The notes under the pieces were generated by a model. It did no database searches. It was not told the DNA's origin and worked only from the letters and a program-made list of their open reading frames with translations. This document shows, one piece after another, positions 5,032 to 9,837 of a DNA stretch of 64,000 nt. The position numbers and the translations under genes are program-made. Position 1 is the stretch's first letter. Each line of letters opens with the position of its first letter. Where the stretch lies: NCBI GenBank assembly GCA_018241785.1, contig JAFEDF010000232.1:1-64000 (forward strand), given 5' to 3'. Origin of the DNA: Pseudomonadota bacterium. Its GTDB lineage: Bacteria; Pseudomonadota; Gammaproteobacteria; Burkholderiales; Casimicrobiaceae.

Positions 5032-6000
5032 ATGACGACTGCGGCCATGCCGTGGACAGCGCGGCTTCGCCAGCGCGCGTTTCGCTCGCAGCCGGCCGAC
5101 CGTGCGCCGGTCATCCTGCGGCACTCGCGCATCTACATCCTGCCGTCGCGGCGTGGGCTCGCCATCATCGCGACGCTCGTGCTGATGCTCCTGACTTCGC
5201 TCAACTACGCGCTGTCGCTGGGCCTCGCGCTGACGTTCTTCCTCGGCGGCCTCGCCGCTGCCGCACTGCTGCACACGTTTCGCAACCTCGCGGGGCTCGA
5301 GATCAAGCCGCTCGCGGCCGGTGACGCGTTCGCCGGGGAGCCGCTCGCGTTCTCGGTGGCGCTCGCCGCCGGCGCACTCGCACGGCGCGCGATCGAACTC
5401 CGTGCGGCGGGCGCGACGGCGAGCGTCTCGCTCGCTTCGCACGCCACGCAGGCAATCGAGCTGCGCGTCCCGACGACCACCCGCGGGCGCATCGCCCTCG
5501 GGCGGATCACGTTGTCGTCGGACCAGCCGTTGGGGCTCTGGCGCGGCTTCGCCTACGTTCATTTCCCGCTCGCCGGGGTCGTCTTCCCGGCGCCCGAGCT
5601 CAACGCCCCTCCTCCTCCGGCGGGCGCCGAAGGCCTGGGCGAGCTCGCAGCCGGCGCGAACACCGAATCGGACCTCGCCGGATTGCAGGACTATCGGCCC
5701 GGCGACCCGCTGCAACGCGTCGCGTGGAAGGCAGTCGCACGCGGCGCGGGATGGTTCAGCAAGGCATTCGAGGGAAGCGGCGGCCGTGGCGCCGTGGAAC
5801 TCGCCTACCGGTCGCTTCCGGCGGCGCTGACCGCCGAGGAGCGGCTCGCACGGCTGAGCGCGTGGGTGCTCGCCTGCGAGCGCGCCGCGCGGCCGTTCGC
5901 GCTGGCCCTTCCGGGCGTTCACCTGCCTGCTGCGCTGTCGCGCGAGCACCTGCATGAAGCGCTGACCGCGCTCGCCTTGTTCGATGCGGGCGAATCGTGA
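5032..6000 (+). CDS. DUF58 family membrane-associated protein
   Basis: The 322-residue protein has two adjacent hydrophobic segments at about residues 40-80 ([23 protein letters not shown]), then a soluble beta-rich region. The DUF58 signature is [26 protein letters not shown] at about 207-235. DUF58 proteins are thought to be partners of MoxR ATPases and to carry a vWA-like portion. The product lies between MoxR and the TgpA-like protein, and its stop overlaps the next start by 1-4 bases, so the three probably form one complex at the inner membrane. The molecular function of the family remains poorly defined. Confidence 0.9.
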
Positions 6001-8039
6001 TGGCGGCGAGCCCGCCGCGCCCGCTCGGCCCGGCGCAGATCCGCGCGCTCGGCGTGCTGCTCGTCGCCGCGCAGTTGCCGCTCGTCGTGCACCTGCCGGT
6101 CTGGGTGGCCGCGTTCGGTCTCTTCCTCGCCGGGCTCCGCTTCGCGCTCCTGCGCCGCGACGAGCGGCTTGCCCGCCTGCGCCCGGCGCGCATTCCGTCA
6201 TGGGCGCTCGCGCTCTTTGCCGTCGCGATCGCGCTGGCGCTGCGCAAGTCGTACGGCTATTTCGTCGGGCGCGACCCGTGCGTCGCCTTCCTGTTCGTGC
6301 TTGCCGGCATCAAGTTCCTCGAAATCCGCACGACCCGTGACGGCACGCTGCTCGCATGCCTCGCGATGTTCGTCGCGCTGACGCCGTTCTTCTATTCGCA
6401 GTCGCTGCTCGGTGCTCTCGCGATGCTTCCTGCGATCGTCGCGGCCGGGGTGGCGCTCGAAGCGCTCGCAGTGCGCGACCCCGGCGCGGCCGGGCCGTCG
6501 ATACGCGCGGCATGGACGCGCAGCGCGTCACTCGTCGCGCAGGGACTGCCGATCGCCGCGGGCCTGTTCCTCGTGTTCCCGCGGCTCGCGACCCCGCTCT
6601 GGGGCCTCCCCGCCGATCACGCCGCGCGGTCCGGACTGTCCGATCGCATGGCGCCGGGGTCGATCAGCGAACTGTCGCTCTCCGATGCGGTCGCGTTTCG
6701 CGTCAGCTTCGACGGCCCGCCGCCCCGCCCCGAAGACCGCTACTGGCGCGGGCCCGTGTTGTCGCTCTTCAACGGCCGCGAGTGGAGCGCGCTGCCTCCG
6801 CGTCCGGGCGGCAGCCTCGCGCGCGGCGACCGCACGATCCGCTACACGGTGACGCTCGAGCCCGACGATCATCGATGGCTCTTCGCGCTCGACCTGCCTT
6901 CGTCGCTGCCGGCGATCGAGGCGGACAGTTCGGTCAACGCCCCGAAGGTGGGCAGCCTCGCGCGCGACCTGCAGCTCGTCGCGCGGGCGCCGGTCACACA
7001 GCCGCTGCGCTATGTGCAGGAATCGGTGCTGGGCGATCGCCATCCGGCCGCCTCGGCCGGCGAGCTGCGCATCGACGCGAGGATGCCGCCGAGCAACCCG
7101 CGGGCGGTCGCGTTCGCGCAGTCGCTGCGCAGCCGCTACCCCAACGATCGCGAGTACATCGGCGCGGTGCTGCGCTGGTTTCGCGATCAGCCGTTCCACT
7201 ACACGCTGCAGCCGCCGCTCCTCGAGGACCATCCGGTCGACGCGTTCCTGTTCGACACGCGCCGCGGGTTCTGCGAGCACTTCGCGAGCGCGTTCGTCGT
7301 GCTGCTGCGCGCCGCCGGCATCCCGGCGCGGGTCGTCACCGGCTACCAGGGTGGCGAGATCAACCCGCGCGGCGGCTACATGATCGTGCGCCAGTCCGAT
7401 GCCCACGCATGGGCGGAGGCGGTCGTCGACGGACAGTGGCAGCGGTTCGATCCGACCGCAGTCGTCGCACCGTCGCGCATCGAGCGCGGCCTCTACGGGT
7501 CGGTGCCGGCGAGCGATCCGGTGCCGCTGTTCGCGCGCGGCGACACCGGGTGGATCAACCACGTCCAGCTCGCGCTCGATGCGATCAACTACCGCTGGCG
7601 GCGCAACGTGATCGAGTTCGACCACGATCGCCAGCGCGCGCTGTGGCGCGACTGGGGTGTCGATCGCTTTCCGCCGTGGCAGGCTGCAATGGCGGTGACA
7701 GCCGCAGTGCTCGCGTGGGCGGTAGCCGTGTTCGCGACGTTCGCGGTGCGGCGAAGACGCGGCGAGCGGACCGCGCGCCTGTGGAGCGCGCTCTGCCGCC
7801 GCCTCGCCCGCGCCGGGCTTCCGCGGCCGCCGTGGGAGGGGCCGATCGCTTACGCCGGACGCGCGGCGCAACGCTGGCCGCAGTTCGCCATCGCGTTCGA
7901 CGCGATCGGCAGTGCCTATGCAATGCTGCGCTTCGGCCCGGTGTCGGAGGACGAGCGCTCGGCGCTCGTCGCGACCCTCGCGCGGGCGATCGAGGTGCTG
8001 CCGTCGCCGGCGTCGCTGCGCGCCACCGCGCACTCGTGA
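5997..8039 (+). CDS. TgpA-like membrane transglutaminase-family protein (DUF3488/transglutaminase/DUF4129)
   Basis: The 680-residue protein has about six N-terminal membrane helices (residues 15-50, 68-83, 95-160, 178-196). A large periplasmic region follows, with a transglutaminase-like triad: Cys426 in RRGFCEHFA, His470 in DAHAW and Asp485 in FDPT. A last helix lies at about 558-582, before a cytoplasmic tail. This is the architecture of Pseudomonas TgpA, an essential periplasmic transglutaminase-like protein. The start is GTG 5997 or ATG 6000, both overlapping the DUF58 stop. It completes the MoxR-DUF58-TgpA operon. Downstream is a repeat-filled gap rather than a fourth gene. Confidence 0.92.
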
Positions 8040-8067
8040 CCTGCGGCGGCGGGTAGCGCGTGCGCGC

Positions 8068-8297
8068 GTTGCAGCGGGGCGCGCACGATTCGCTGCGGCG
8101 GCGGACGGTGCGTGCGCGCTCGGAGTCCGCAAACGCCTGCCTGCGGGGACCCGGCGCCGCTTCGCAAGGTGTGCATCGCGGAGATATCTGCAGTGTCGCG
8201 GTGCTCGCGGCGCCACCCGCTGCGGCAGGCGCTCCCACTCGCGCGCACGCACCGTCCACCGCCGCAGCGAATCGTTACTGCAGGCCGCCGCTGCGAC
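8068..8297. repeat. Large imperfect palindrome A in the tgpA-nlpD gap
   Basis: Bases 8087-8119 and 8241-8273 are 33-base inverted repeats with one mismatch, and pairing continues inward around ACGCCTGCC/GGCAGGCGC and GGCGCCGC/GCGGCGCC. The centre is near GATATC at about 8183-8188. Outer parts (8068-8086 with 8274-8297) pair less well. Segment 8203-8243 is, in reverse, almost identical to 8384-8424 of palindrome B, so A and B belong to one repeat family. No reading frame here has coding character. Confidence 0.75.
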
Positions 8298-8356
8298 ACG
8301 GTACGCCCGCAGGGCTGCATTGGCCGCTGATTCCCGGCGACGCGCCACGGGCGCAA

Positions 8357-8540
8357 GCGCAGCCGGGCGGGAAACAGGCGCTCGCGCGAGTGGCAGTGCC
8401 TGCCGCAGCGGGTGGCGCGACGAGCGAGCCCGAGGGCGAAGTCAGGTCGCCGTCTTCGTCGAGCGACGTCGCGCCGGGCACCCGCCGGCAGGCGTTCACG
8501 GACCTTCGAGCGCGAGCGCCTGTTTCCCGCCCGGCTGCGC
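8357..8540. repeat. Large imperfect palindrome B in the tgpA-nlpD gap
   Basis: Bases 8357-8387 and 8510-8540 are perfect 31-base inverted repeats (core CGGGCGGGAAACAGGCG). A second block pairs TGCCTGCC..GGGTGGCGCGACG (about 8397-8422) with CGACGTCGCGCC..GGCAGGCG (about 8465-8494). A central loop holds 8425-8460. It is related to palindrome A over about 41 bases. Together they fill most of the 583-base space between convergent genes. Possible roles are a structured RNA end or terminator, or copies of a short palindromic element. The sequence alone does not decide. Confidence 0.75.
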
Positions 8541-8550
8541 CTGTGCGGAA

Positions 8551-8608
8551 GTGCGGCTGCGCGGACGCTGACGTGCGGCTGCGCGGACGCTGACGTGCGG
8601 CCGCACAG
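8551..8608. repeat. 22-bp tandem duplication plus partial third copy
   Basis: The unit GTGCGGCTGCGCGGACGCTG+AC occurs perfectly at 8551-8572 and 8573-8594. A third partial start (GTGCGG) then runs into the short palindrome GTGCGGCCGCAC. It lies between palindrome B and the end of nlpD (stop at 8623). Such a repeat can change copy number between strains. Confidence 0.8.
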
Positions 8609-8622
8609 ATGTCGGAGCGAGA

Positions 8623-9837
8623 CTACGCCGGAGGCAGGAACTTCTCCGGATCCATCGGCTTGCCGTAGCGCCGGATCTCGAAGTGAAGCTTCACCTGGTC
8701 CGAATCGGTGTTGCCCATCTGCGCGATCTCCTGCCCGCGCGCAACCTGCTGGCCCTCCTTCACGAGGAGCGCGCTGTTGTGCGCATAGGCCGACAGATAC
8801 ATCGCGTTGTGCTTGATGATGATGAGCTTGCCGTACCCGCGCAAACCGGAGCCTGCATAAACGACCTTTCCTGCCGCGCTCGCGTACACCGGCTCGCCCA
8901 TCGCGCCGGCGATGTCGATGCCCTTGAGATTCGCCGAATCGGAGAACTGCGCGATCACCTTGCCCTTCGCGGGCCACACCCAGCCGAGCTGGTCGTCGGT
9001 GCCGGTCGCAGCACCCGCCGGCGCAGCCGCGGCGGCAGCAGCGGGCGCCGGTGCCGCTTCATTCGCGCCGCTTCCGGATGCGGTCGATGCGGGAGCCGGC
9101 GCCGCGGGCTGCGTCGCAGCTTGCGCGGGTGCCGGCACCGACGCCGCGGCGAGATTGAGTTCGCGTACCGCGCGATCGGAGTACGGCAGCTTGACCGCCT
9201 TGGGCTCGGTCTCGATCGCCCCACCTGTGGGCGCTGCCGCCGACACTCCCGGCGTGGGCTGCGAAGGTGCGCCGCCCGCCGGACTCGCGCCGCCCGCGGG
9301 CGAGGACGCTCCGGGGCTTGCGACCGTCGCGCCGGGTTGCGACGGCACCGTCGACGCGACGATCGGCGGCTCGGTTCGAAGCGGCGTCACGGTCACTCCG
9401 GGTCCGGGCTGCGCGGTCGCGACGCTTCCGGCTTCAGGCGCCGCGGCGAGCGCGGCCGTGCCGTTCGCCGCGGTGCCCGCCGCCGCCGCGGCCTGGCCGG
9501 GTGCGGCAAGCTGCAGCACTTCGCCGACGTAGATTCGATCGATGTTGACGATGTGGTTCCACGCCGCGAGCTCGCGGTAGTCGAGGCCGTTGTCGAGCGC
9601 GATCTGGTAGAGCGTGTCGCCGCGCTTCACCGTGTAGGTCGCCGCGCGCCCGCCTTCCTGCGAACTTGCGCGCGCGCCGCCCGGCTTGCGCGCGCCCGCA
9701 GCCTTCACGGCGGGACGCTCCTCCACCGGCGCCGGATTGGGCGTCGCACATCCGGCGACGATCGAAGCGGCCACGATCAAAAGCGCAGCCGAGCGCACGG
9801 CGCACACGAAGGCGCCGGCTGGAAGTCGCGGAATCAT
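8623..9837 (-). CDS. nlpD: NlpD-like lipoprotein, LysM plus degenerate LytM/M23 domain (murein hydrolase activator)
   Basis: The 404-residue protein starts at ATG 9837, 31 bases after pcm. A lipoprotein signal ends in the lipobox IVAGC (about residues 26-30). A LysM domain (YTVKRGDTLYQIA..LDYRELAAWN) binds peptidoglycan. A long Ala/Pro-rich linker then leads to a C-terminal M23/LytM domain from about 285. The metal ligands are degenerate: the usual HxGID is LKGID and the HLHFE motif is KLHFE. This is expected for NlpD, which activates amidase AmiC at division rather than cutting peptidoglycan itself. It ends the surE-pcm-nlpD run; the usual next gene, rpoS, is not here. Confidence 0.9.
   Translation of the reverse strand: MIPRLPAGAFVCAVRSAALLIVAASIVAGCATPNPAPVEERPAVKAAGARKPGGARASSQEGGRAATYTVKRGDTLYQIALDNGLDYRELAAWNHIVNIDRIYVGEVLQLAAPGQAAAAAGTAANGTAALAAAPEAGSVATAQPGPGVTVTPLRTEPPIVASTVPSQPGATVASPGASSPAGGASPAGGAPSQPTPGVSAAAPTGGAIETEPKAVKLPYSDRAVRELNLAAASVPAPAQAATQPAAPAPASTASGSGANEAAPAPAAAAAAAPAGAATGTDDQLGWVWPAKGKVIAQFSDSANLKGIDIAGAMGEPVYASAAGKVVYAGSGLRGYGKLIIIKHNAMYLSAYAHNSALLVKEGQQVARGQEIAQMGNTDSDQVKLHFEIRRYGKPMDPEKFLPPA

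What the first reader, a model, noticed from the sequence alone, without database searches (positions are those of the whole stretch)
8068..8540. Two related large palindromes side by side in the tgpA-nlpD gap
Seen: 33-base arms with one mismatch (8087-8119/8241-8273), perfect 31-base arms (8357-8387/8510-8540), and a 41-base block shared by both in opposite orientation (8203-8243 and 8384-8424). The family relation suggests duplication or insertion of a mobile palindromic unit. This is a second convergent junction filled this way, out of six in the window.
Basis: seen in the sequence. Interest (0 to 1): 0.6.

Follow-up and report, generated by a model that had tools for sequence, protein, structure and literature searches.

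The report
Paired giant DNA hairpins, dispersed repeat
The two palindromes are one copy of a newly recognised, probably mobile non-coding DNA element made of two long hairpins facing each other; some 26 such hairpins lie between genes in this bacterium, and their outer stems have a different sequence at each site yet still pair.

Summary
Window 8085-8275 (+) and 8351-8546 (-) are two ~190-bp hairpins, inverted to each other. They share a ~125-nt core (8118-8242, 8386-8511) but not their arms. The core is a dispersed repeat family: 26 hits at E<=1e-5 in the own genome, present in 6 of 21 other genomes of the genus, in a second genus of the family and in a genus of another family; absent from most relatives and from Rfam, and one copy each found nothing in plasmid and phage records. 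In G008, where copies are recent, the whole element is ~400-450 bp with sharp ends: hairpin A, spacer, inverted hairpin B, in either orientation, without target duplication. Neighbouring hairpins face each other in 29 of 30 cases. Of 55 loci, 32 lie between convergent genes, none between divergent genes. In this genome the arms pair at 85-90% of positions yet are no more alike between copies than shuffled sequence; cores are 77-83% identical. Arm mismatches show no strand bias. Best reading: a REPIN-like non-autonomous palindromic element, a new variant of a known kind. The proposed TnpA-REP link fails: five carriers, this genome included, lack Y1 transposase. The mobiliser is unknown. The junction at 1073-1342 holds a different family.

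The parts
8085..8275 (+). Hairpin unit 1: arms 8085-8117 and 8243-8275 around the core
8118..8242 (+). Conserved core of unit 1: type A foot, but an apical part (TCGCAAGGTGTGC) like that of type B copies
   Evidence: CM hit E 1.0e-18; alignment
8276..8350 (.). Spacer between the ends of the inner arms
8351..8546 (-). Hairpin unit 2, inverted to unit 1: arms 8351-8385 and 8512-8546 around the core
8386..8511 (-). Conserved core of unit 2 (type A)
   Evidence: CM hit E 1.7e-18
8041..8067 (+). Partial direct copy (85%) of the left arm of unit 1, just outside the unit
   Evidence: D2
8532..8597 (+). 22-bp tandem repeats next to the outer arm of unit 2
   Evidence: D1
6000..8039 (+).
   Evidence: product not retested
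8623..9726 (-).
   Evidence: product not retested

Best explanation
This is one copy of a non-coding, REPIN-like mobile element of roughly 400-500 bp, made of two long imperfect hairpins, A and B, in inverted orientation. Shown: a dispersed family; a facing pair as the usual unit; sharp ends at the outer arms with no convincing target duplication in the recent copies; location behind genes, mostly between convergent ones; covarying core stems; arms that pair but differ from copy to copy. Inferred: it is moved in trans by an unidentified enzyme, perhaps as single-stranded DNA, because the ends are hairpins and there is no target duplication. It survives where it disturbs no promoter. After insertion the arms drift in sequence but are kept complementary, most likely by template switching across the hairpin (quasipalindrome correction). 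The same process would homogenise A and B within a locus, which would explain the A/A pairs of this genome. The cores keep their asymmetric internal loops, so they are probably what the mobilising protein recognises.
For: Copies: 26 hits at E<=1e-5 in G000; carriers in the genus and family and in family f11; 5-21 hits in each of ten other carriers. Element ends and spacer are shared by unrelated loci of G008 in both orientations, over 405-450 bp. No target duplication in 4 of 6 copies; the other two show only AACA and an A-run. 29 of 30 neighbours are + then -; most pairs outside G000 are A/B. 32 of 55 loci convergent, 0 divergent, against 6 and 5 of 53 junctions in the window. Core covariation: 97.2% of cells paired, 33 double-sided cells, 0 of 500 shuffles as high. 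G000 arms: self-pairing 0.90 (A) and 0.85 (B), identity between copies 0.61 and 0.60 against 0.57 and 0.58 shuffled, core identity 0.77 and 0.83. Mismatches G.T 49, A.C 62: no strand bias. At orthologous locus C132, 4 of 7 left-arm changes between G000 and G011 are mirrored exactly on the right; P 0.004 for the overlap of changed positions.
Against: No movement was observed and no transposase was identified: Y1, Y2 and IS110 are each missing from several carriers. In the G012/G017 orthologs the arm changes I read by eye are mostly one-sided, so correction is not strict. Sites without units in G011 could be losses: at C233 and C242 a single outer arm plus about 5 core bases remains. Genomes are draft assemblies, and many copies sit at contig ends. 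The C132 test is one locus, chosen because it could be aligned.
Confidence: 0.66

Rival explanations
1. A structured RNA or 3'-end element (terminator, mRNA stabiliser or sRNA), spread by duplication and kept by selection for RNA pairing.
For: Lies behind genes, never between divergent ones; very stable folds; core covariation.
Against: Arm mismatches show no wobble bias for either strand (G.T 49, A.C 62). No T-run follows the stems I read. No Rfam family matches. Patchy presence at orthologous sites.
Confidence: 0.13
2. A classical MITE derived from a DDE transposon, with the two units as terminal inverted repeats.
For: Inverted ends, a non-coding spacer and sharp boundaries.
Against: No convincing target duplication in G008. 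Each end is itself a full palindrome. No larger copy enclosing a transposase gene was seen in the fetched loci.
Confidence: 0.1
3. The arms are copied from the target at insertion (an inverted target duplication) rather than brought by the element.
For: In G011 the right outer arm sequence of C233 and C242 is present without the core (0 of 500 shuffles). Arms are locus-specific in G000.
Against: About five core bases remain beside that arm in G011, as after a deletion. In G008 arms are shared between sites (identity A 0.74, B 0.87). At C147 the match to the G011 gap is not significant.
Confidence: 0.15
4. A TnpA-REP (RAYT) mobilised REP/BIME.
For: Inverted doublets in extragenic space resemble REPINs (PMC3116915).
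Against: PF01797 absent from G000, G005, G011, G017 and G021. No unit near the searched Y1 genes. Units are about 190 nt, not 20-40.
Confidence: 0.05

Closest known systems
REPINs / REP doublets of Pseudomonas and others (PMC3116915)
   Same: Two inverted palindromic units with a spacer; extragenic; dispersed; singlets read as remnants.
   Different: Units are about 190 nt instead of 20-40; two distinct hairpin types; arm sequence differs at each locus; no RAYT in several carriers.
CGTC-tagged REPs (PMC3733652)
   Same: Dimers, often heterodimers; no dedicated transposase found.
   Different: Their stems are 8-9 bp with a 4-5 base loop; here the stem is many tens of bp with internal loops.
ERIC/RU intergenic repeats of enterobacteria (PMC2229807, PMC2759123; abstracts read only)
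   Same: Small intergenic mobile repeats of 100-170 bp, described as MITE-like.
   Different: Other sequence; here two units form an element and the arms are locus-specific.
PATE elements of Haloquadratum walsbyi (PMC3119063; found by term search, details from memory)
   Same: Palindrome-associated non-coding elements.
   Different: Archaeal; relation not tested.

Membership tests
REPIN / RAYT-associated REP | Inverted doublets as the unit | tested here: met
   29 of 30 neighbours + then -
REPIN / RAYT-associated REP | Extragenic, dispersed, many copies | tested here: met
REPIN / RAYT-associated REP | Associated Y1 tyrosine transposase in the genome | tested here: not met
   PF01797 absent in G000, G005, G011, G017, G021
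REPIN / RAYT-associated REP | 20-40 nt palindrome with a GTAG or CGTC tag at one end | tested here: not met
   Units ~190 nt; no such terminal tag seen by eye in the alignments
MITE | Terminal inverted repeats, no coding capacity | tested here: met
MITE | Target-site duplication | tested here: not met
   None convincing in 6 full copies of G008
IS91 (Y2) or IS110 derived element | Matching transposase in carriers | tested here: not met
   Y2 in 2 of 11 and IS110 in 4 of 11 carriers
Known RNA family | Rfam match at gathering score | tested here: not met
   0 matches in five loci; in the window only sub-threshold hits

The most novel reading that the evidence does not exclude
A class of mobile DNA whose recognised part is the apical core, while the outer stem is defined only by complementarity and is rewritten at each site by hairpin-templated copying, so that stem sequence is free but stem pairing is not.
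Probability: 0.2. Interest if true: 0.7.

Novelty: new variant of a known kind. Interest (0 to 1): 0.45.

Why it matters
It adds a large, two-type hairpin family to the REP/REPIN world, in uncultured Burkholderiales relatives, without the transposase usually invoked. Its arms are a natural record of how palindromes keep their pairing while the sequence turns over, which can be tested against template-switch models.

Tried and rejected
Y1, Y2 and IS110 transposases as linked mobiliser: each is missing from several carriers. Rfam: nothing. Plasmids (one G000 copy) and phages (one G008 copy) by distant blastn: no match. Viral contigs: two pattern hits that are chance matches inside a phage gene. 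A shared gene next to the elements: none recognised; the protein matches found are mostly orthologous neighbourhoods. Relation to the 1073-1342 palindromes: no cross-hit. At first I read the arms as target-derived; the shared arms of G008 argue against that. A scar of the C147 element in G011 was tested and is not significant.

Full report
Observation. Each unit is a ~190-nt imperfect hairpin. Unit 2 is an inverted homologue of unit 1 over a ~125-nt core, but the arms of the two units are unrelated.

A repeat family. blastn with each unit found many places in the own genome. A covariance model of 19 cores gave 26 hits at E<=1e-5. Carriers in a first survey: six of 21 other genomes of the genus, two genomes of another genus of the family, and one genome of another family. 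A model spanning both hairpin types hit 3 of 399 order genomes: the own genome and two of one genus in family f11; there only nine candidates per genome were scored, so absence is weak evidence. With fuller scoring, ten carriers gave 5-21 hits each.

Anatomy. Aligning the recent copies of G008 defines the element: outer arm, core A, inner arm, spacer, inner arm, core B, outer arm, 405-450 bp in all, in both orientations, with flanks unrelated beyond the arms. Six full copies show no convincing target duplication. Outside G000 most pairs are heterotypic, A with B; in G000 many are A/A. A and B share a core motif GGGT-CCCGG ... CCACCC with an asymmetric internal loop.

Location. My own codon-usage gene calls place 32 of 55 loci between convergent genes, 23 between tandem genes and none between divergent genes. 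The window has 6 convergent and 5 divergent among 53 junctions. Orthologous loci are counted separately and loci are not independent, so the binomial P-values overstate the case; the direction is clear.

Arms. In G000 the arms self-pair at 85-90% of positions, but their identity between copies is close to that of shuffled arms, while cores are 77-83% identical. In G008 arms are shared between copies. Arm mismatches of the G.T and A.C kinds are about equally frequent, so there is no sign that pairing is maintained on one strand as RNA. At locus C132, shared by G000 and G011, five of seven left-arm changes fall at positions changed on the right too, four of them exact mirrors. This is one locus, chosen because it is alignable. 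In the copies of G012 and G017 changes look mostly one-sided. Template switching is reported to homogenise inverted-repeat arms (PMC8604942, PMC7202029; abstracts read).

Sites without units. The tgpA-nlpD gap is 96 bp in the closest relative G011 and 3-30 bp in five others. C233 and C242 lack the units in G011, G012 and G017, and C233 also in G005; C132 is occupied in G011 but lacks a unit in G012 and G017. In G011, C233 and C242 keep one outer arm and about five core bases, which suits loss by deletion at least as well as an empty target; at C147 no such trace is significant. The direction of change at this locus is therefore open.

Mobiliser. Y1 is absent from five carriers, Y2 from nine of eleven, IS110 from seven of eleven. 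No gene sits inside an element pair; the only genes listed as inside (L137, C70) lie between two separate loci. Movement by an enzyme acting in trans is inference.

Verdict. A new palindromic repeat family of REPIN-like design, without the defining transposase and tag of REPINs.

Noticed in passing
   Followed up: partly
L149, L150, L155, L157 (G017 and G012 intergenic regions): Another short palindromic repeat, around AAAAACAGGGACGTACCACG...CGTGGTACGTCCCCGTTTTT, recurs in intergenic regions of G012 and G017.
   Followed up: no
L251 1501-1605 and L257 1501-1606: At what look like orthologous sites of G069 and G406 the unit lies in opposite orientation relative to the flanks, as if inverted in place or inserted twice.
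   Followed up: no
G000 C151:90 and C200:240: These two contig ends probably flank one and the same element, since their flanking genes are adjacent in G005; the assembly seems to break at the hairpins.
   Followed up: partly
L127 (G000 C185), L136 (C248), L135 (C132), window 8532-8597: Tandem repeats of arm or flank sequence lie next to many hairpins, suggesting replication slippage at the stems.
   Followed up: no
G012 and G017 orthologous units (L142/L218, L141/L220): The apical part of the hairpin differs far more between close relatives than the rest of the core.
   Followed up: no
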